From contig NZ_JAIXHL010000002.1 of assembly GCF_030145815.1 (NCBI RefSeq), positions 231,141-295,140 on the forward strand: 64,000 nucleotides of DNA, given 5' to 3'. The notes beneath the pieces are model-generated. The model did no database searches. It was given only the letters and a program-made list of their open reading frames with translations, and was not told where the DNA came from. How positions within the stretch are numbered: the first letter of the stretch is position 1; each line of letters begins with the position of its first letter. The translations under genes and the position numbers were made by a program. Below, in pieces: positions 2,677 to 15,031 of the stretch. The stretch comes from Sphingomonas sp. (GTDB taxonomy: Bacteria > Pseudomonadota > Alphaproteobacteria > Sphingomonadales > Sphingomonadaceae).

Positions 2677-4641
2677 ATGGCCACGATCGAGTATGATCCG
2701 GCTGACGAGCTGCTTATCCTGCGCGGCGCGGGAACGGTCGTCCGACATCCGCTATTGGCGGCATTCACCCGCCAGGTCGGCGGAGCGCTCGATGATGATG
2801 GGTCGCTGCGGATTCCGACCGCTCCCGAGGAACTCACCAACCGCTATCAGACGCTTTCTCGATTGCTGGCGAAACTCGCCGTCGAGATCGAGACCGGCGG
2901 GCATGTCTCGGACGCGTTGGACCGCGTCGAGTCGGAGGAGCAGCAGTTCGTAGAATTCTCGCGGCAGGCTCGTGCGATCTGGGATGCGCAGATAGACACC
3001 GAAGCCTTCCGTGATTTCGTCGCTGTCGTCGAGGAGGCCTGCCCGGGTCGCACCTTCTATCGCAAGCAGCTCCTCTCGGCGTTCCATCTCGCCTTCTCGC
3101 AAAATGCGTGCAATTTCTCGGTGCCGGGCGCGGGCAAGACCTCGGTGGTCTACGCAGCCTATGCCTACCTTCGAAGTTTGCCGTCAGAGGACCCGAAGTC
3201 GGTCGATCGCCTCCTGATTGTCGGGCCGCTCTCCTCGTTCAAGGCGTGGGAGGACGAGTTCGCCTCGATCTTCAATCACCAGCCCGTGTCGCGCCGTCTT
3301 TCCGGTGGTGTGCCGACATTGGATCGGACCGATCACCTTCGTGGGATCAGCGTCAACTCGCGTTCAACAGAACTTACGCTCACCACCTATCAGACACTGG
3401 CGAACATGGAGGATGAGTTCCGGACCTTCCTCATGCGGGTCGCCCCCCGCGCGATGGTGGTTCTGGACGAGGCGCATTACATCAAGAGCGCGGATGGGCT
3501 GCAGGCCGCCGCGGCGTTGCGGCTCGCCCCACTAGCCCGTGCACGCGTGGTGCTCACGGGGACGCCGGCGCCCAACGGTTACGAGGACCTCGCGAACCTG
3601 TTCCGCTTCATCTACCCGACACGAAACATCACGGGGTTCCCGACGGCCTCCCTGCGGGCCATGACGGACGGCTTGATGCCCGCCGCCATCCCAGAGCTCA
3701 AATCCAAGATCGAGCCGTTCTACACGCGCATCCGCAAGAGCGACCTGTCGCTGCCCGACGCCGAGGAAAGGCGCGTCGCCGTGCCGATGTCGGCGGACCA
3801 CGAACGCATCTACCGGAGCCTCGAGAACCGCATCGTACCGCACCTGAAACAGCAGATGGACGATCCCTCGGCGACGATCAGGGTTCGGGCGCGGCTGATA
3901 CGCCTTCGCCAAGCGGCCGTGAATCCGGAGCTCCTCCTGCGCCCACTCGAGACCGAGGATGGTATTTTCGACACGGGCGGAAGCGGCGATCTCAACATCG
4001 CCGAACTCGAGGTGGCCGACCTGATCAGGAACTTCTCCGCCAGGACGGACCTCGCCCGCCTCGGGGTGTGTCGGACATTGACCATCAGCGTGCTGGCCGA
4101 TCAGGGGAAGATCCTGATCTGGTCCTATTTCCTCGGGAACCTCGACCTATTGCGGCGTGGGCTCGGTGACCTTGCGCCTTTCATCGAGGTCCTCACCGGC
4201 GCGACCCCCGTGGCCAGTCGCGAGGATGACGCGGCCGTTGAGCTTGGCACGCGAGAGGAAATCATCGACCGGTTTCACTCCACCACCGACCGGGCGATCT
4301 TGATCGCGAACCCTCAAGCGGTCGGTGAATCGATCTCGCTGCACAAGGCATGCAGGACAGCCATCTATTTTGACCGGGACTTCAACGCGGGCCGCTTCAT
4401 TCAGTCAAAGGACCGCATCCACCGATACAATCCAGCCGGCGGCGAAGCGGTCACTTATCATCATCTGGTCACGCCCGGAACCGTCGATCAGGATATCGAC
4501 ACTCGGCTCACGGTGAAGGAACGTCGACTTGCGGACCTCGTAGACAAGGATGACATCCCGCTGTTGACGGCGGCCGATGACAGCGACCTCAGCGATCTGC
4601 GCGCTATCTTCGAGGCATATGAGCGCCGCAAGGCCCAGTGA
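2677..4641 (+). CDS. SNF2/DEAD-like superfamily II helicase
   Basis: Walker A-like SVPGAGKTS, Walker B MVVLDEAHYIKS, LTGTPAPNGYEDL, C-terminal helicase motif SKDRIHRYNPAG. Confidence 0.85.
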   Translation: MATIEYDPADELLILRGAGTVVRHPLLAAFTRQVGGALDDDGSLRIPTAPEELTNRYQTLSRLLAKLAVEIETGGHVSDALDRVESEEQQFVEFSRQARAIWDAQIDTEAFRDFVAVVEEACPGRTFYRKQLLSAFHLAFSQNACNFSVPGAGKTSVVYAAYAYLRSLPSEDPKSVDRLLIVGPLSSFKAWEDEFASIFNHQPVSRRLSGGVPTLDRTDHLRGISVNSRSTELTLTTYQTLANMEDEFRTFLMRVAPRAMVVLDEAHYIKSADGLQAAAALRLAPLARARVVLTGTPAPNGYEDLANLFRFIYPTRNITGFPTASLRAMTDGLMPAAIPELKSKIEPFYTRIRKSDLSLPDAEERRVAVPMSADHERIYRSLENRIVPHLKQQMDDPSATIRVRARLIRLRQAAVNPELLLRPLETEDGIFDTGGSGDLNIAELEVADLIRNFSARTDLARLGVCRTLTISVLADQGKILIWSYFLGNLDLLRRGLGDLAPFIEVLTGATPVASREDDAAVELGTREEIIDRFHSTTDRAILIANPQAVGESISLHKACRTAIYFDRDFNAGRFIQSKDRIHRYNPAGGEAVTYHHLVTPGTVDQDIDTRLTVKERRLADLVDKDDIPLLTAADDSDLSDLRAIFEAYERRKAQ

Positions 4642-5584
4642 CGGCCTGCTCCCCGCTGGCTCGACCATCTCGATGGTCGAGCTGCTGGCGAGAAGGTCTG
4701 ACGGGACGTCGATAGACCACCTGTTGAGGGACCTTGCCGCGATCAACAGCATATCTTGGTCGAGGGCCCGGAACACGGTCGCAAAGCTGATCGCGTATGG
4801 CTTGTTCGAGACCGACGCCAAATCCTTGGTCCGGCTGGCTCCTGGAGAGCGCCCGGACGTGCCGGATTGGATCGCGGAGCGGGTCGCCGCCGAGTTCACC
4901 GCGCTGCTGACAAAGGCCGAAGCCTGGTCATGCGTAGGTCGTGATCCGGCGACCGGCGACCTGACGATCGACGCCATGACACTGCCGCCGATCCGGGACG
5001 GCTTGGCGATGTGGCTAACCGAATTCGCGATCGCCCAGCGCGCGGCGGTTCAGACGCGTTTCTGGAAGGTGTCCGACAATCACAACAACGCCTTCCTGAG
5101 GGGCGCTCGAGATGCGAACAAGGAGACGCCGCGCCGGGCGAAGTCGGCCGAGCGCCTCGCTGCCGATCTAGCTCAGCAGGCCGAGGCTGGCGCGGCCGCC
5201 GAGGTATGGGTCGTCCAGTATGAACGCGAGCGGTTGTCCGATCATCCATTGCGAGACCAGATCCGCCGGGTCTCGGAGGACGACGTCTCGGCGGGATATG
5301 ATATCGTGTCATTCGCTTCGGTCCATTCGATTCGGCACGATCGGTTCATCGAGGTTAAGTCGTATGGCGAACGGAAGGTGTTCCATTGGTCGCGCAACGA
5401 GATCGCGACCGCTGTGGAATTTGGTGAGGACTATGCGCTTTACCTCGTGGATCGCGAGCGGTGCGAGCAGGCGGGATATTCTCCCCACATGATAACTGGA
5501 CCCACGCCAGAGATGTTCGCCTTGCCCGACAGCGGTTGGCGCGTTGAGGCCACCTCGTTCGAGCACGTCGCCATCTCGGAATAA
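4619..5584 (+). CDS. DUF3883-type domain protein (putative nuclease-fold)
   Basis: C-terminal GYDIVSF...RFIEVKSYGERKVFHWSRNEIATAVEFGEDYALYLV matches the DUF3883 pattern; start overlaps the end of the helicase gene by about 23 nt. Confidence 0.7.
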   Translation: MSAARPSDGLLPAGSTISMVELLARRSDGTSIDHLLRDLAAINSISWSRARNTVAKLIAYGLFETDAKSLVRLAPGERPDVPDWIAERVAAEFTALLTKAEAWSCVGRDPATGDLTIDAMTLPPIRDGLAMWLTEFAIAQRAAVQTRFWKVSDNHNNAFLRGARDANKETPRRAKSAERLAADLAQQAEAGAAAEVWVVQYERERLSDHPLRDQIRRVSEDDVSAGYDIVSFASVHSIRHDRFIEVKSYGERKVFHWSRNEIATAVEFGEDYALYLVDRERCEQAGYSPHMITGPTPEMFALPDSGWRVEATSFEHVAISE

Positions 5585-5586
5585 AT

Positions 5587-6006
5587 TCAGCTCAATCGAG
5601 GAGACCCCAGGAAGTCAGTCAATCGCCTCGTCAGGTCGGCTATGTCGCGGGTCTCGCACTCCCAGATCGTCAGCGTCTCCCAGCCAAGTGCGGACGCGTC
5701 ACGCTCGAGCCGGTCATCCCGCTCACGATTGCGCGCGAACTTCGCCTTCCAGAACTCGGTGCGGGTGGAAGGTGTCCGGGAGAGGCTGCAGCCGTGGGCA
5801 TGCCAGAAGCAACCATGGATTTGCACGCAGCGTCGACGAGCTGGGAATGCGATGTCAGGTCGACCAGGGACCTCGCCGAATTGGACGCGGAAGCGGTAGC
5901 CCAGGCTGTGAAGGAGCCGACGAACGACCAGTTCTGGTTTGGTGTTCGCCCTGCGGATGCGCGCCATGTGCGCGCTACGTTGTTCAGGTGTCAGCCGATC
6001 CGCCAT
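5587..6006 (-). CDS. vsr: very short patch repair (Vsr) endonuclease
   Basis: MADRLTPEQRSAHMARIRRANTKPELVVRRLLHSLGYRFRVQ...PGRPDIAFPARR...IHGCFWHAHGC, canonical Vsr motifs. Confidence 0.92.
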   Translation of the reverse strand: MADRLTPEQRSAHMARIRRANTKPELVVRRLLHSLGYRFRVQFGEVPGRPDIAFPARRRCVQIHGCFWHAHGCSLSRTPSTRTEFWKAKFARNRERDDRLERDASALGWETLTIWECETRDIADLTRRLTDFLGSPRLS

Positions 6007-6038: not shown

Positions 6039-7709
6039 TCACCGTGCTGAAGTCTCCGACAACCTCCTTTTGGGCTGATTGCGGATCGGTGCGGCCAAGA
6101 GGGGATTCACGCGCGACGCGATGAGCAGCCCGGCCAGGATCAAGGCCGCGTTACGCTGTAATTTGGGTACGCCCGGGATATCCGCGAGGCCGTCGCGATA
6201 CTCATGCTCGAGCATCGAGGCTATCAGGCGCTGTGCCTCCGCGTCGTGATCGGCCAGCGCATCGATCAGGCTCGAGCCCGTTTCGCTGAGTTTGTCCAAC
6301 ACCATGAAGGGACGTGTCCCGCCGGGCCCATGATGGCTCCAGACCGCCTGCAGGTTGTGGATGTCGGCCGTCGATATGAAGTCCGCGAGATCATCGAGCG
6401 GCGCGGTGACTGCCTCCGTCAGTTCGATCGACATGGCCGATGTCAGCCTCCGCGCCATGGATTGGTCCAGGACGAGACTGAGTATCTCCTTCGACGTCCC
6501 GAAGTAGAACGCGACCTCCCATCGGACATCCGCCCCGCAGTGATCGTTCCGAAACTCGAAACGGACGCCGCTCTTCAATTGCAGGCTTGGTATCGCGAAC
6601 CGGAAGGTCCGCGTGGTCGGATAGCGCGCTCCTGCGCGATCCGGTGGCGTCTCAACTGGAGTGGGCACCGGCCGCACCAGCGCCTTGGCGACGTCTGACA
6701 ACGGCTGCACCTTGTCAGCTGGGTGGTCTTGGAGGACATGCCCCATCAGGTAGGCGAACGCGGGCGGTACGGCGTTCCCGATCATGCGGAGCTTCTGACC
6801 GTAGTTCGCCCCGTAAAACTGGAAGGTAATCGGAAAACCTTGGAGGCTGGCTCGCTCCCGCAGCGTGAGCCGCCGATATTCCTCACGATCGGACCCGGTC
6901 GCGATGACGATGCTCTCGCGTGACACGCGCGTGCATGTGGCGGTAATCGTCCGAACGGTCCGATCCAAGGGATCGGGGAATGGCATGGCATTGTAGACGG
7001 TGTGCGTTACCTTGTGGGACCGGTTGATCCGGGCCTCCTCGAAATTCAGGACGTCCTCCTCGACATGATCGATCAGGTCCTCGCGTGGTATGGCGATGCC
7101 AAAGATGGGATCGACGACAATCTCATTCTTCAGCGAGCGGATCACATCGCCCAGGAGCCGTGGCCGGGTGTTGGCTTGGTAGGATTCCAGCAGGCCGATG
7201 TCGAAGTTGCCGGCGACGCACCGCCGTCGCCGTTGAGGCAGGCCATAGTTGGCCATGTCAATGATATGCGTCACGCAGCCCAGATGATTGAACTCCTCGA
7301 GCGCTCCACCCTCCTTGAGTTCCGCCTCGATGATCTTCGCCACACGGGGCACGTTCTCCATTGCCCAGACACGCGGTTGCAGATGATCGACGATGGTTAG
7401 GAAATGCTTCACGTCTTCTAGACCATCGGCGATGTCACCGCCCCCACCACGATTGCTGTAGGAGAACTGGGTACAGGGGGGGCTGCCGACGACGATGTCT
7501 ATGTCGTCAGGGAGGTCTGCGAGCGCTAGCCGGCGGATATCAACCGTCTGCGCTTGATGGAAGTTGTTCTTGAAGTTGGTCTCGTTCGCAGGTCCCCATT
7601 TCTCGTAGGACGCGACAACTTCGACGTTCGCCAAACGCAACCCCAATGACCATCCGCCGACACCGGAGTAGAGGTCGATCGCCCTCGGCCTTTTCGATTT
7701 GCGTCCCAT
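6039..7709 (-). CDS. DNA (cytosine-5) methyltransferase with C-terminal extension
   Basis: Start MGRKSKRPRAIDLYSGVGG; motifs GSPPCTQFS (IV), ENVPRV (VI), LPQRRRRCVAG (VIII), LQGFP...GNAVPP (IX/X); then about 230 aa of unassigned C-terminus. Confidence 0.92.
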   Translation of the reverse strand: MGRKSKRPRAIDLYSGVGGWSLGLRLANVEVVASYEKWGPANETNFKNNFHQAQTVDIRRLALADLPDDIDIVVGSPPCTQFSYSNRGGGGDIADGLEDVKHFLTIVDHLQPRVWAMENVPRVAKIIEAELKEGGALEEFNHLGCVTHIIDMANYGLPQRRRRCVAGNFDIGLLESYQANTRPRLLGDVIRSLKNEIVVDPIFGIAIPREDLIDHVEEDVLNFEEARINRSHKVTHTVYNAMPFPDPLDRTVRTITATCTRVSRESIVIATGSDREEYRRLTLRERASLQGFPITFQFYGANYGQKLRMIGNAVPPAFAYLMGHVLQDHPADKVQPLSDVAKALVRPVPTPVETPPDRAGARYPTTRTFRFAIPSLQLKSGVRFEFRNDHCGADVRWEVAFYFGTSKEILSLVLDQSMARRLTSAMSIELTEAVTAPLDDLADFISTADIHNLQAVWSHHGPGGTRPFMVLDKLSETGSSLIDALADHDAEAQRLIASMLEHEYRDGLADIPGVPKLQRNAALILAGLLIASRVNPLLAAPIRNQPKRRLSETSAR

Positions 7710-7848
7710 AATAGCCCCCACGAATACACGGGAACCCTTCAATAGATCCTCTCGCGCTATTGCAAGATCTTTCGTCGCCACGTGTGCGGCTTCAAGTCGG
7801 AGCAAGCCGACTAGCCGTGTCAGCCGCCGCCCTCGCGTCGGGTATGCG

Positions 7849-8184
7849 CGGTCGCATTTTTTGTCGCCAAAGCTGGAAGACCGCCGGGACGCCACGGAGA
7901 AGCTGTGGGACGCATTCGAGCGCATGAAGACGCTTGAACCGGGCTCGGACAAGAAGGTGCAGGCCGACGCGCTCCCTCAATCGTGCTGCGAATCCCGGAT
8001 CGAAGATGAGAGTTGCGCTGGGGCAAGAGGCGAGGGCGTTGACCATGCTCGGCAACAGCCTGCGCATCCGTCACTCGGAGGTGACGCAGGAGATGATCGA
8101 CCGATCCGAGCAGCTTGACTGGCTTTCGTGCGGATGTTCAGCTTAGTGCGCTTTCTCCTCCTTGGCGCCGGGCGCAGCGACTGA
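7849..8184 (+). pseudogene. frameshifted C-terminal remnant of a HEPN/abortive-infection-like protein
   Basis: Three consecutive frames give LEDRRDATEKLWDAFERMKTLEPGSDKKVQAD / SLNRAANPGSKMRVALGQEARALTMLGNSLRIRHSEVTQEMIDRSEQLDWL / LAFVRMFSLVRFLLLGAGRSD*, together resembling one protein C-terminus. Confidence 0.6.
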
Positions 8185-8280
8185 GAATCATGGTCAGGCG
8201 CGCGATCCAAAGCGCGAGGCCCTTGCAATGTTCTTGGTGCGTTCCCAACTGCTGACGGAGCTCTATGGGAGGGGCGACGC

Positions 8281-9729
8281 ATGAGGCAGCTTGAGGTTGA
8301 GAACCAGCTCCGCGATGTGGTCAGCCGCATCATCCTTCAGGTGGAGCTGGCGACGGCGCAGGGTAGGACCGACATAAACCTGGCGCTGGAGGATGCGTTC
8401 ATCCCCATCCTGAAGTCGGTCTTCAACCTGCCGCACCTTATAAACCTCAACCGCAAGCAGAAGAACTATCCCGGCATCGACCTCGGCGACGACCACGACC
8501 GCGTCGCCTTCCAGGTGACGTCCACGACCGGCCTGGAGAAGGTGAAGTTCACGGTCGGCCAGTTCATGACCCGATCCTACTACAACACGTTCGATGAGCT
8601 CTACGTGCTGATGCTCGGGAAGAAGCAGTCATCTTACAGCCAAAACGCCGTGAACGCGCTTCTGACGGAGGACTTTTCCTTCAATTGCGCCAAGCACATC
8701 ATCGACCTCGGTGACATCCTGGGCATGGTGACCGGACTGCGGTTGGCCGCGCAGGAGCGAGTGCTGGCGGAGTTGAGGCACATCCTCGGCGAGGTTGACG
8801 CCTTCATCAGCATCCGTTCCGAGACGGTCGAGGCGCCGACCGCGATCACAACCAATCTGCAGGAGATCCGGCTGCCCGATGCCGTGTACGTCGCCGAATT
8901 GACGATCAACGATAAGGCAGTGGTCGAGCGGGCGAAGGTTGAGCTGAGCTACAGGGGGTATGCCAAGGGTCGCAGGGCGGTCGTGAAGATGGCCCTGCTC
9001 CTGAACGACGTGCAGACCGACGCATGGGTCTGTCATGACAACAAGCTGTTCTCGTTCACGGATATCGCCTCCAGCGGCCTCGTCAGCATCGTGGACGAGG
9101 GCACCGTGGAGCGGCTGGACGTCGCCGATCTGGCAGACTCCGACGAGCTGGACAACGTCAACGTCCTGAAGCAGCTGCTCGCGGCCGAGGCTCGTCAGAT
9201 GCTCAAGGCGCGCAACGTGCGCGCCCATCCGAAGGACGGCTTCTTCTTCTTCGTGCCGTTCGAGGATGGCCAGGACATCCGCAGGGAGGCCTGGGTCGGC
9301 AAGGCCAACGCGACCCGCACTGTCTATGTGGTCAGGTATCAGAAGAAGGACCCGGACAAGGTCCTGCACCATCAGCACTTCTCATTCGAGCTGACGTTCT
9401 CGAACCTTGGTGGGACCTGGTTCGCCCAGATCGTGCCGAGTTGGTATTTCTCTTACGACGGCTTCAGGCGGTCGAACTGGCACGACAAGCTGCTGTCCAA
9501 GCAGAAGCGGCTCGAGCTCAACCTGAGCGTGCGGAATGCGGTGCGTTTCGTCGCGTACTTCCTGTTGAACAGCAGCGGGGCGGATGAGGCGGATGAACAG
9601 TCGCTGAGGTTCGGAACGCTACTCGAGTTCGACGTGGATCGCGATGGCGAGGAGGACCTGGACGACGGGGACATCGCCGCGGATGCCGCCTTCGATGACG
9701 ACATGACCGATGATGAGGTGGCGGCATGA
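8281..9729 (+). CDS. SMEK-like N-terminal domain + APAZ-like domain protein (short-pAgo partner)
   Basis: N-term ...NRKQKNYPGIDLGDDHDRVAFQVTSTTGLEKVKF (SMEK-type); C-term KLFSFTDI...GTVERLDVADL...GFFFFVPFEDG...WFAQIVPSWYFSYDGF...KQKRLELNLSVRNAVRFVAYFLL (APAZ-like); overlaps the downstream PIWI gene by 4 nt. Confidence 0.7.
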   Translation: MRQLEVENQLRDVVSRIILQVELATAQGRTDINLALEDAFIPILKSVFNLPHLINLNRKQKNYPGIDLGDDHDRVAFQVTSTTGLEKVKFTVGQFMTRSYYNTFDELYVLMLGKKQSSYSQNAVNALLTEDFSFNCAKHIIDLGDILGMVTGLRLAAQERVLAELRHILGEVDAFISIRSETVEAPTAITTNLQEIRLPDAVYVAELTINDKAVVERAKVELSYRGYAKGRRAVVKMALLLNDVQTDAWVCHDNKLFSFTDIASSGLVSIVDEGTVERLDVADLADSDELDNVNVLKQLLAAEARQMLKARNVRAHPKDGFFFFVPFEDGQDIRREAWVGKANATRTVYVVRYQKKDPDKVLHHQHFSFELTFSNLGGTWFAQIVPSWYFSYDGFRRSNWHDKLLSKQKRLELNLSVRNAVRFVAYFLLNSSGADEADEQSLRFGTLLEFDVDRDGEEDLDDGDIAADAAFDDDMTDDEVAA

Positions 9730-11135
9730 AACTGACCACCCTTGCAGAGCCGCTTCTCGAGTTCGGCACCGGAACGCACATCTGCCCGCGCACGGGCATC
9801 GAGAACATGGGAGTCTATGACAAGCGCGATGAGCTGCGCCGGACCGAGCTTCGGATTGGCGTCGTTGGTCGCGGTGAGGGCATCGACCTCTTCGACGAAT
9901 GGCTGGAGCGCTGCCGGGAGGGCGTCGAGCGCAAGAAGGAATCCCAGCTCCTGAACCTTTTCCGTGGCTTTGGAGGGGTGAACCAGAGCTATGGCTTTCT
10001 CACTAGGCTGATCAACTCGCCCCAGTATGCACGGCTGCTCAAGAAGTCGGAGATCACGGCGATCGTGAAGCTGGCCTCTCGCGCCGACCGAGTAGAGCGG
10101 GCCGTAAATCTCTATTACGAGCAGATCCGCTTCCTGGCCGAGAACAGGTCCGTCGACGTGATCGTCTGCGTCATGCCGAACGAGATGTTCGATTCCGTGA
10201 CCACCGCCGCAGTCGGCGACGACAAGGATGATAGCGAGCTCGAGCACAACTTCCGGAGGAGGCTGAAGGCCCGGTGCATGCACCTCGGGACGCCGCTTCA
10301 GCTCGTCCGGGAGAAGACCATCCTCATCACCAAGTTCGCCGGAGAGCAGCAGGATCCCGCGACGAAGGCCTGGAACTTCTGCACGGCCCTCTACTATAAG
10401 GGGAACCGGACGATCCCCTGGCGGCTGGTCGAGGACGGCTCCAAGCTGAGATCGTGCTACATCGGCATCGGGTTTTACAAGAGCCGTGACGGCGAGACAG
10501 TGTCGTCCAGTCTGGCACAGGTCTTCGACGAGTTCGGCCATGGCATCATCCTGCGCGGGACGCCCGTTTCAATCGACAAGAAGAACCGGCATCCCTTCCT
10601 GAGTGAGGATCAGGCCTACGAACTGCTCAGCGACGCGCTGGACGAGTATGACCGCGCGTTGGAGCACATGCCGGCCCGGATCGTCATCCACAAATCCAGC
10701 CGGTTCCGCGATGGCGAGCGCAAGGGCTTCTTGCGGGCGTTGAAGGAGAAGGGCATCCGCTCGAAGGATTTCGTCGCCATCACGGACACCGACGTCCGCC
10801 TCTTCAGTGACAAGAAATATCCGCCCAAGCGAGGAACCCTGCTAACCATCTCGGAGACTGAAGGCGTCCTGTATACGAGGGGCACCGTTGATTTCTACAA
10901 GACTTATCCGGGACAGTACGTGCCGAGCCCGCTCAAGATCACGGTCTACGAGCAGGACTCTTCGCTCGAGAGCCTGTGCGATGAGATTCTTGGTCTGACC
11001 AAGATGAACTGGAACAACACCCAGATGGACGGGCGACTGCCTATCACGCTCGAATGCGCGAAGAAGATCGGCGACATCATGAAGTATGTGAGCGTGAACG
11101 AGAAGCCACAGGTCAGTTACAGCTTCTACATGTGA
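9726..11135 (+). CDS. short prokaryotic Argonaute (MID-PIWI)
   Basis: RRRLKARCMHLGTPLQLV (MID-like); PIWI signatures YIGIGFYKSRDGETVSSSLAQVFDEFGHGIILRG, PARIVIHKSSRF, KKYPPKRGTLLTISETEGVLYTRGTVDFYKTYPG, LTKMNWNNTQMDGRLPITLECAKKIGDIMKYV; about 470 aa without N/PAZ. Confidence 0.88.
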   Translation: MKLTTLAEPLLEFGTGTHICPRTGIENMGVYDKRDELRRTELRIGVVGRGEGIDLFDEWLERCREGVERKKESQLLNLFRGFGGVNQSYGFLTRLINSPQYARLLKKSEITAIVKLASRADRVERAVNLYYEQIRFLAENRSVDVIVCVMPNEMFDSVTTAAVGDDKDDSELEHNFRRRLKARCMHLGTPLQLVREKTILITKFAGEQQDPATKAWNFCTALYYKGNRTIPWRLVEDGSKLRSCYIGIGFYKSRDGETVSSSLAQVFDEFGHGIILRGTPVSIDKKNRHPFLSEDQAYELLSDALDEYDRALEHMPARIVIHKSSRFRDGERKGFLRALKEKGIRSKDFVAITDTDVRLFSDKKYPPKRGTLLTISETEGVLYTRGTVDFYKTYPGQYVPSPLKITVYEQDSSLESLCDEILGLTKMNWNNTQMDGRLPITLECAKKIGDIMKYVSVNEKPQVSYSFYM

Positions 11136-11884
11136 TCGTGGCTACCGCCAGCCGGCTGATCTGACACCGCAGCGCTGACGCTGATTGGATGATTCGTGTC
11201 GGGACTGAGCGGCAATAATCGCGGCTTGGCAGTTGCTGGACATGTTGGCATCGTAGATGAAATCGACGGTCTCGGCGCATCGTTGTGCGCCATCTGTGCA
11301 CGCATATTGCGACGAACACTTTATAGCGCACCCAACCGGATTGGAATTTGCGACCCAACGCTTAGAATGGTCGTGCTCTATCCTTCATTGAGTCTGACGG
11401 ATTAGGGGGCAGTCGCGAGGCAGATTTTCGCTAACCGCCCAAGGCCCGCAAGCCAACAAATCCCAGTTGGAGCCGTTCAATTCCCGCCGCCGATGATGTC
11501 CGCTTTCGCGTTCGTGCCGCCAAAACTACCAGTCCGCCAACGGCTCAGAATAAGACAACCACCGCCCCGGTTGGGTACTAGCGGCTCGGATGCAGTCATC
11601 TACAACGAGCGCTTCAGCGAAAGCATTCGTATTGCGAACGGGCGCGATCGGGCATATAATAGTAGCTCGCTTCAATGCGATGAGCCGAGATCAGATCGCA
11701 CCCGGGCAGCGTCCCGTAATGTGAGTCGGCGATAGAAGGGTGGCAGTTGGCACCCATGTTCCGGCGGTGGCGATGCCCGCGCGGACTGGCCGGCCCTAAT
11801 GGCTCGGTCATGGAGCTTTCCGCGTGAACAACGCTCGCGGATCTCATCCCGCATTGGCCTCGATGCAGGCCGAAAGGACATCGC

Positions 11885-13336: not shown

Positions 13337-15031
13337 ATGACCGAACGCCGACGCGCCTTCATCTATCTGCGGGTCAGCAATGACGATGAAGGCGGCAACA
13401 ACGCCTCCAGCGCGGCGCAGGAGGCCGCCTGCCGCTCCCTGTGCGAACGCGAAGGTATTGCGGTGGCCGAGGTGTTCGAAGAACTGAACGTGTCAGGCCG
13501 AAAGCTGCAGCGCAGGCAGTTCGACCGGATGATCGCACTGGCGACCGCTCCTACCCGCCCGGTGGACGTCGTCGTCGTTTACGCGCTGAGCAGATTCACC
13601 CGGCGCCTGCTCACTCAGGTCACCGCCGAGCACAAGCTCACCGAGGCCGGGGTGAAGCTGATATCCGTCATCGAGGGGATGGGCGACGATCCCAACAGCC
13701 GGATGATGCGCGGGTTCATCGCGGTGATGAACGAGAAGTACGCCAACGATGCATCCACGTTCACGTGCCGCGATCGGCGCGGCAATGCGCAGGCGGGGTA
13801 CTGGAACGGTGGTCCGGTGCCGTTCGGCTATGAATCCCGCGTCGTGACTATTGAGGGACGCAAGGAGCGCAAGAAGCTGTTCGCGCGCGAAGACGAGGCG
13901 GCAACCGTCCGCCTGATCGTCAAACTGGCCTGCTCCGGACTGACCGGCCAGCCGATGGGCACGCGAGCGATCGCAAAATATCTGAACGACAATGGCTACA
14001 CGATGCGGGGCAGGAAATTCTACCACAGCAACGTCGATGGCATCCTGACGCGCGAACATTATGCCGGATCCTACCGCGACCGCACGCGCGACGATAACGG
14101 CGTGCCCCCAAGCGCTGCCGACGAGATCGTTGTCGCATGCCCAAAGATTATCGAGCCCGATGTGATGGCCCGCGTTGCCGCAATCCGATCACGGGCGGCC
14201 CCGCGCGTGACGGCGCCGCGCACCACCAACTCGCCAGTGCTTCTCGGCGGCCTGGCGACATGCGGGCATGCCGAATGCAACGCCGGCATGGTGATCAGGA
14301 GCGGCAAGGGCGGCCGGTACCGCTATTACGTCTGCAACCGCAAGGCGACGGCCGGTGCGGATATTTGCGGTAGCAGCTCGATCCGCGAAGATGCGCTCGA
14401 CACCATCGTACTGGATGGCCTGCTCCACCGTGTGCTTTCCCCCGACCGCTTGCGCCAGCTTCTCGCTGACGTGCTCGACCGTTCCGATGACGCGAGGCAG
14501 CGCCGCGAAAGGGATCTCGGCCGCGTTCGGCGCGAGCGCGTCGCGGCGGAGACGCGGCTCCGGCGGCTGCTCGAGATCGTCGAGGAAGGCATGATGAGCG
14601 TGCGCGATCCGATCTTCGCAGCGAAGCTCGCAGAAGCCAATGCGTCCATCGCCGCACTTTCGGAGACTGAGCGCAGTCTAGCCGGGCAGCTCGGCAGCGC
14701 GTCGCGCCAGATCACGGACGAAGCGATCCAACAATTCGGTAATGCGCTGCGTGCTCGCATCATGGCCGAGGATAGCGCCATGCGCCGCGCCTACGTTCGC
14801 CTGCTCGTCTCCAGCGTGACGGTCAACGACAACGAAATCGTCATAGCGGGGTCAAAGGCAGCCCTCGAAAATGCTGCCCAACAAGGCGATCCCGCAGCTT
14901 GCGCCGCGGTGCCCAGTTTTGACCGGAAGTGGTGCCCCTGGCCGGACTCGAACCAGCATGCCTTGCGGCGGTCGATTTTGAGTCGACTGCGTCTACCATT
15001 TCGCCACAGGGGCAGCGAGCGGGCTGGCTAG
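13337..15031 (+). CDS. large serine recombinase (resolvase + recombinase + zinc ribbon)
   Basis: MTERRRAFIYLRVSNDDEGG...VVVYALSRFTRR...; zinc-ribbon-like region LGGLATCGHAECNAGMVIRSGKGGRYRYYVCNRKATAGADICGS; coiled-coil C-terminal part. Final ~35 codons are antisense tRNA-Leu. Confidence 0.92.
   Translation: MTERRRAFIYLRVSNDDEGGNNASSAAQEAACRSLCEREGIAVAEVFEELNVSGRKLQRRQFDRMIALATAPTRPVDVVVVYALSRFTRRLLTQVTAEHKLTEAGVKLISVIEGMGDDPNSRMMRGFIAVMNEKYANDASTFTCRDRRGNAQAGYWNGGPVPFGYESRVVTIEGRKERKKLFAREDEAATVRLIVKLACSGLTGQPMGTRAIAKYLNDNGYTMRGRKFYHSNVDGILTREHYAGSYRDRTRDDNGVPPSAADEIVVACPKIIEPDVMARVAAIRSRAAPRVTAPRTTNSPVLLGGLATCGHAECNAGMVIRSGKGGRYRYYVCNRKATAGADICGSSSIREDALDTIVLDGLLHRVLSPDRLRQLLADVLDRSDDARQRRERDLGRVRRERVAAETRLRRLLEIVEEGMMSVRDPIFAAKLAEANASIAALSETERSLAGQLGSASRQITDEAIQQFGNALRARIMAEDSAMRRAYVRLLVSSVTVNDNEIVIAGSKAALENAAQQGDPAACAAVPSFDRKWCPWPDSNQHALRRSILSRLRLPFRHRGSERAG
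14930..15013 (-). tRNA. tRNA-Leu (CAA), CCA encoded
   Basis: Reverse complement GCCCCTGTGGCGAAATGGTAGACGCAGTCGACTCAAAATCGACCGCCGCAAGGCATGCTGGTTCGAGTCCGGCCAGGGGCACCA: acceptor, D, anticodon, variable and T arms all present. Confidence 0.95.

What the first reader, a model, noticed from the sequence alone, without database searches (positions are those of the whole stretch)
8281..11135. Candidate new short-Argonaute operon: SMEK-like/APAZ effector plus MID-PIWI short pAgo
Seen: two + strand genes overlapping by 4 nt (ATGA at 9726-9729). The second has the full set of PIWI signatures in about 470 aa with no N or PAZ region. The first ends in an APAZ-like region (FSFTDI, GTVERLDVADL, WFAQIVPSWYFSYDGF, RLELNLSVRNAVRF). 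Established: short pAgos pair with APAZ proteins fused to effectors such as SIR2 (SPARSA), TIR (SPARTA) or DUF4365/DREN-like nucleases (SPARDA), and act in prophage/plasmid defence by abortive mechanisms. Inference: the N-terminus here does not read as SIR2 or TIR. It reads as a SMEK-type domain, so this may be a distinct effector class.
Basis: partly seen in the sequence, partly recalled or inferred. Interest (0 to 1): 0.93.

Follow-up and report, generated by a model that had tools for sequence, protein, structure and literature searches.

The report
SMEK-type short Argonaute defence operon
This is a two-gene bacterial defence cassette, a short Argonaute that most likely recognises foreign DNA with an RNA guide plus a partner nuclease that then cuts DNA indiscriminately; it is real and well formed, but it belongs to a type already named and partly characterised.

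Summary
Two + strand ORFs, 8281-9729 (482 aa) and 9726-11135 (469 aa), overlap at ATGA 9726-9729. The first is SMEK_N (Pfam PF21941, E 2.5e-43) followed by APAZ; the second is a MID-PIWI short pAgo. The APAZ half matches solved SPARDA partner proteins by sequence, profile and fold, and the pAgo's best PDB matches are SPARDA pAgos (E 2e-85). SMEK-APAZ/short-pAgo pairs are already named in the literature as SPARDA-type nuclease effectors, the Kordia jejudonensis pair was studied in 2020, its nuclease domain is in the PDB (26bh; E 7e-22 to ours), and PADLOC models both proteins. A pAgo tree groups the SMEK-linked pAgos together, beside the DUF4365/DREN group and apart from TIR and SIR2. DNA similarity to relatives ends close to the two genes, so it travels as a cassette. 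Most likely it is an RNA-guided, DNA-activated collateral nuclease. A side observation, a Nostoc relative with an EAD8 adaptor instead of SMEK and a trypsin-EAD8 gene upstream, may be newer than the finding itself.

The parts
8266..8275 (+). Shine-Dalgarno-like GGGAGGGG a few bases before the ATG of the effector gene (position approximate)
   Evidence: read directly from the sequence; not tested
8281..9729 (+). SMEK-APAZ effector gene, 482 aa
8308..8724 (+). SMEK_N nuclease-like domain (residues 10-148); D31, E37, D67, Q78, T80, K87 invariant
   Evidence: PF21941; PDB 26bh; conservation
8821..9630 (+). APAZ domain (about residues 181-450)
   Evidence: (Foldseek to SPARDA partner chains; profile-profile E 4.8e-37 with DUF4365-APAZ proteins)
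9726..9729 (+). ATGA start/stop overlap between the two genes
9726..11135 (+). Short pAgo (MID-PIWI, first catalytic Asp position is Gly), 469 aa
8210..11135 (+). Extent of DNA similarity shared with most close relatives in other genera: the apparent transferred cassette (8029-11185 with L003)

Best explanation
A SMEK-type SPARDA (short pAgo plus nuclease-APAZ) abortive defence cassette. The two proteins form a heterodimer in which APAZ supplies the N-L1-L2-like surface that the short pAgo lacks. The pAgo loads a small RNA guide (probably 5'-phosphorylated) and pairs it with invader DNA (plasmid or phage). Duplex formation re-orders the PIWI domain and makes complexes assemble, which brings SMEK domains together and switches on non-specific DNA cutting, so the invaded cell dies or stops growing. 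Shown here: gene arrangement, domain identity, homology to SPARDA, conservation of most guide-binding residues, loss of the first PIWI catalytic Asp, spread as a cassette. Inferred from characterised relatives: heterodimer, RNA guide, DNA target, assembly, collateral nuclease, cell death. SMEK as a PD-(D/E)XK (Mrr-like) enzyme rests on homology to PDB 26bh, named 'Mrr domain' by its depositors, and on conserved E37, D67, Q78 and K87.
For: SMEK_N E 2.5e-43; PADLOC models of both proteins, 610 and 614 bits; SMEK matches the Kordia Mrr-APAZ domain at E 7e-22, and 4.6e-45 as a profile. APAZ matches SPARDA chains by sequence (E 6e-19), by fold (the 24 best Foldseek hits are all SPARDA, best E 3.6e-15) and by profile. 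The pAgo matches SPARDA pAgos at E 2.3e-85 to 2.2e-78, far ahead of SPARTA or SPARSA pAgos. The pAgo tree groups SMEK-linked pAgos at 100/98, with DUF4365-linked pAgos (99/98) as neighbours and TIR and SIR2 outside. Residues that NbaAgo uses for the guide 5' phosphate and the first two bases (N181, F182, R183, K187, Q224, N232, K240 in PMC12205087) correspond to N175, F176, R177, K181, Q209, N217, K225 here and are invariant in the pAgo alignment. Literature: SMEK-APAZ/KjAgo is described as an RNA-guided heterodimer with weak collateral nuclease activity.
Against: No activity is shown for this pair. Some NbaAgo guide contacts are not conserved: W201 is R195, R221 is G206 and R459 is E443, so guide preference may differ. 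SMEK and DREN profiles do not match significantly (Prob 1.1%), so DREN tetramerisation in filaments cannot simply be carried over. The effector model is poor in the SMEK half.
Confidence: 0.82

Rival explanations
1. A new effector class of short pAgo systems: SMEK is an undescribed effector that defines a new SPAR type.
For: SMEK does not match DUF4365, TIR or SIR2 by HMM, SMEK/DREN profile comparison is not significant, and SMEK-linked pAgos form their own group.
Against: SMEK-APAZ short pAgo systems are named in PMC10810196 and PMC12205087, one was studied biochemically in 2020, its nuclease domain is in PDB 26bh, and PADLOC, Pfam and NCBIfam cover it.
Confidence: 0.04
2. A restriction-like system: the pAgo guides the SMEK nuclease to cut only the target DNA, without collateral damage or cell death.
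For: The 2020 Kordia study is described as RNA-guided target DNA cleavage (PMC10810196); a PD-(D/E)XK domain could cut in cis.
Against: A later account describes weak collateral dsDNA and ssDNA cleavage by the Kordia complex (PMC12205087); the closest DREN relatives are collateral nucleases switched on by target recognition.
Confidence: 0.11
3. A decayed or inactive locus in which the effector no longer works.
For: Several relatives have a broken or missing SMEK part.
Against: Here both frames are intact over full length (no internal stops), candidate active-site residues are kept, and the encoded proteins stay 95-98% identical to those of other genera at 90-92% DNA identity.
Confidence: 0.03

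Closest known systems
Kordia jejudonensis SMEK/Mrr-APAZ plus KjAgo (Kim et al. 2020; nuclease domain in PDB 26bh)
   Same: Same effector domain (E 7e-22, aligned over residues 13-161, with D31, E37, D67, Q78, K87 kept), SMEK-APAZ partnered with a short pAgo
DREN-type SPARDA (DUF4365-APAZ plus short pAgo): NbaSPARDA 9jsb-9jt2, XauSPARDA 9qbl/9qbq/9qcc, Enhydrobacter 9qbp
   Same: Operon layout, APAZ, pAgo (E 1e-78 to 1e-85), most guide-binding residues
   Different: Nuclease domain is SMEK, not DUF4365; guide contacts W201, R221, R459 are R195, G206, E443; pAgo in its own sub-branch
SPARHA (HNH-associated short pAgo, PDB 9om4)
   Same: Short pAgo E 2.9e-72, partner found by fold (E 3.5e-6), nuclease effector
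   Different: HNH, not SMEK
SPARTA (TIR-APAZ) and SPARSA (SIR2-APAZ)
   Same: APAZ and short pAgo architecture
   Different: NADase effectors; pAgos much more distant (E about 1e-30 to 1e-22)

Membership tests
SPARDA in the broad sense (short pAgo plus nuclease-APAZ, SMEK included) | Short pAgo with MID-PIWI only | tested here: met
   469 aa; PADLOC pAgo_I 1-455/455; best PDB hits are SPARDA pAgos
SPARDA in the broad sense (short pAgo plus nuclease-APAZ, SMEK included) | PIWI catalytic residues lost | tested here: met
   First catalytic Asp position read as Gly (YIGIG, residues 245-249), invariant G249; the other tetrad positions were not mapped one by one
SPARDA in the broad sense (short pAgo plus nuclease-APAZ, SMEK included) | Partner carries an APAZ domain | tested here: met
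   phmmer to 9qbp/9qbl/9qbq/9jsb, Foldseek best E 3.6e-15, profile-profile E 4.8e-37
SPARDA in the broad sense (short pAgo plus nuclease-APAZ, SMEK included) | Partner carries one of the listed nuclease domains (DREN, SMEK, MRR, HNH) | tested here: met
   PF21941 E 2.5e-43; PDB 26bh 'Mrr domain' E 7e-22; list of types in PMC12205087. Nuclease activity itself not tested
SPARDA in the broad sense (short pAgo plus nuclease-APAZ, SMEK included) | Both genes in one operon | tested here: met
   ATGA overlap; the pair is adjacent in all 13 relatives fetched
SPARDA in the broad sense (short pAgo plus nuclease-APAZ, SMEK included) | RNA guide, DNA target, collateral nuclease, assembly on activation | not testable with these tools
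   Guide 5'-end residues largely kept, W201, R221, R459 equivalents changed
DREN-type SPARDA (strict) | DUF4365/DREN nuclease domain | tested here: not met
   No PF14280 hit; SMEK versus DUF4365 hhalign Prob 1.1%
SPARTA | TIR domain | tested here: not met
   No TIR hit; TIR-linked pAgos form a separate group
SPARSA | SIR2 domain | tested here: not met
   No SIR2 hit in Pfam; PADLOC SIR2 models match only residues 242-431, the APAZ part
PD-(D/E)XK nucleases | Catalytic acidic residues plus Gln/Glu and Lys on the common core | tested here: inconclusive
   E37, D67, Q78, K87 invariant and kept in the Kordia domain; the weak hhalign sets D67 and Q78 opposite the catalytic D and Q of DREN, not significantly; low-confidence model of this half

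The most novel reading that the evidence does not exclude
SMEK-type systems differ from DREN-SPARDA in guide choice and in how the nuclease is switched on. The first-base pocket residue W201 and two basic guide-phosphate contacts (R221, R459) of NbaAgo are R195, G206 and E443 here; the last position is E, D, G or A in the SMEK branch but mostly Arg or Lys in the TIR-linked and half of the DUF4365-linked pAgos. SMEK also has no detectable DREN homology, so the active assembly may be different.
Probability: 0.25. Interest if true: 0.4.

Novelty: new member of a known kind. Interest (0 to 1): 0.2.

Why it matters
It adds an intact member, with close plasmid-borne relatives, to the less studied SMEK branch of nuclease-type short pAgo systems. 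It could be used to test whether the target-induced filament assembly seen in DREN-SPARDA also holds for SMEK effectors. It does not add a new effector class.

Tried and rejected
Searched IMG/VR with the effector and GenBank phages with the pAgo: nothing, so no evidence of carriage by phages. Looked for TIR, SIR2 and DUF4365 in the N-terminus: none. Tried to show SMEK homology to DREN by profile comparison: not significant. AlphaFold models: the APAZ part was usable (blocks of pLDDT mostly 77-90), the SMEK part was not, and the pAgo model (mean pLDDT 44) was discarded; the alignments were shallow. The promoter scan gave no site in front of the operon. A search centred on the Nostoc record could not be run. 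Searched for a paper joining APAZ and effector-associated domains: none in the held library; the two EAD papers read do not mention Argonaute or APAZ. Caution: the Kordia row of alignment A3 was typed from the match printed, and its first seven letters were not in that printout, so A3 is not used for claims; Kordia conservation is taken from the HMMER alignments and window-family conservation.

Full report
What is there. Two ORFs on the + strand, 8281-9729 (482 aa) and 9726-11135 (469 aa), overlap by ATGA at 9726-9729. A GGGAGGGG stretch lies just before the first ATG. Relatives in genomes of several alphaproteobacterial families and one Acinetobacter keep both genes side by side.

The effector. 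Residues 10-148 are SMEK_N (PF21941, E 2.5e-43; NCBIfam NF033859). The only solved relative found by sequence is PDB 26bh, named by its depositors 'the Mrr domain from Kordia jejudonensis Mrr-APAZ pAgo' (E 7e-22 with the single sequence; 4.6e-45 with a profile). D31, E37, D67, Q78, T80 and K87 do not vary among the ten SMEK domains aligned, and D31, E37, D67, Q78 and K87 are also kept in the Kordia domain. D67 and Q78 sit in GIDLGD...AFQVTS, which resembles the D...QxK core of PD-(D/E)XK nucleases. A profile comparison with nine DUF4365/DREN domains sets the same D and Q opposite the catalytic ones but is not significant (Prob 1.1%), so common descent with DREN is not shown here. Residues of about 190-450 are APAZ: they match SPARDA partner proteins by sequence, the top 24 Foldseek hits are all SPARDA chains with SPARTA, SPARHA and SPARSA weaker, and the APAZ profile matches that of DUF4365-APAZ proteins at E 4.8e-37.

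The pAgo. PADLOC pAgo_I covers residues 1-469 at 613.6 bits. The best solved relatives are SPARDA pAgos (9qbp_B E 2.3e-85, 9qbl_B 6.9e-83, 9jsb_A 2.2e-78), then the SPARHA pAgo 9om4_B (2.9e-72), with SPARTA and SPARSA pAgos at 5e-30 and weaker. The first catalytic Asp of active Agos appears as Gly249. Residues that hold the guide 5' end in NbaAgo (PMC12205087) are mostly kept: N181, F182, R183, K187, Q224, N232, K240 correspond to N175, F176, R177, K181, Q209, N217, K225. W201, R221 and R459 are not kept: they correspond to R195, G206 and E443 (mapping from the alignments).

Placement. In a tree of 37 short pAgos labelled by the effector next to them (effectors named by Pfam or by record annotation), the SMEK-linked pAgos are one group (100/98) that also holds one EAD8-linked and one effector-truncated member. 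The eight DUF4365-linked pAgos are one group (99/98), the five TIR-linked ones another (100/100), and the SIR2-linked ones lie outside. The join of the SMEK and DUF4365 groups has 91/95 support. Some rows have long branches, so deep joins are unsure.

Spread. BLASTN of the first 20 kb of the window against relatives in other genera shows similarity that ends close to the two genes (window 8210-11135 at 92% with a Rhizobiaceae genome; 83% with Novosphingobium plasmid pLA4), and nothing else in the neighbourhood matches. The pair therefore seems to move as a compact cassette. Relatives occur on plasmids; 30 of 51 effector-matching plasmid records are typed conjugative, though many of these match only SMEK or only APAZ. 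No pAgo match was found in phage records. In samples of whole genomes, 18 of 399 of the phylum had a pAgo match and 7 of 399 a SMEK match.

How it works. By relation to the Kordia and SPARDA systems, the most likely mechanism is an RNA-guided, DNA-activated heterodimer whose SMEK nuclease becomes a collateral DNase, giving abortive defence. Only the anatomy, the homology and the spread are shown here. Guide type, target, assembly and cell death are carried over from relatives.

Comparison with what is known. [quoted passage not shown] system' and describes the earlier Kordia study of a SMEK-APAZ/short pAgo heterodimer. PMC10810196 does the same. PADLOC-DB of 2023 already models this effector and pAgo, and plasmid records already label relatives 'SMEK domain-containing protein'.

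Verdict. A new member of a known kind, intact and probably functional. Interest 0.2.

Noticed in passing
L051:2542-6351 (Nostoc carneum NIES-2107 plasmid2, AP018182.1 108930-112739): A short pAgo nested in the SMEK-linked group (48% identical to the window's) has an APAZ partner whose N-terminus is an EAD8-like adaptor domain (PF19961, E 8.5e-6 for that part alone, just under the curated cut-off) instead of SMEK; the gene directly upstream encodes EAD8 (E 4.4e-23) plus a trypsin-like protease domain (E 4.3e-23). This suggests a short pAgo that recruits a protease effector by EAD8-EAD8 pairing. No paper joining APAZ and EADs was found in the held library. One locus only, and the two EAD8 stretches do not align by BLASTP.
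   Followed up: partly
L065:4001-5269 (Nostoc sp. HK-01 plasmid6): The same EAD8-like N-terminus (56% identical over 139 residues) is fused to an FGE-sulfatase domain, so this adaptor is shared between different proteins in Nostoc.
   Followed up: partly
L012:8001-9404, L013:1733-3116, L022:161-1414, L024:54-1441, L050:4001-4816: Five relatives have a damaged SMEK-APAZ gene (in-frame stop, frameshifts, lost N-terminus or lost SMEK domain); in four of them the neighbouring pAgo frame is intact, in L013 it is broken too. This could reflect a cost of the nuclease or assembly errors; not controlled.
   Followed up: partly
window:2677-7952: Next to the cassette lies what looks like a defence island: an SNF2-type helicase (2677-4641), a NOV_C-type protein (4577-5584), a Vsr endonuclease (5587-6006, - strand) and a C5 cytosine methyltransferase (6039-7952, - strand).
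   Followed up: partly
window:13337-15031 and 14930-15013: A large serine recombinase ORF whose 3' end runs over a tRNA-Leu(CAA) gene on the other strand: a possible integration site at the edge of the island that holds the pAgo cassette.
   Followed up: no
L049:3627-8676 (Novosphingobium pentaromativorans US6-1 plasmid pLA4): The closest plasmid-borne relative sits between a YhhA/YhhB cyclophane RiPP gene pair and recombinase genes.
   Followed up: no
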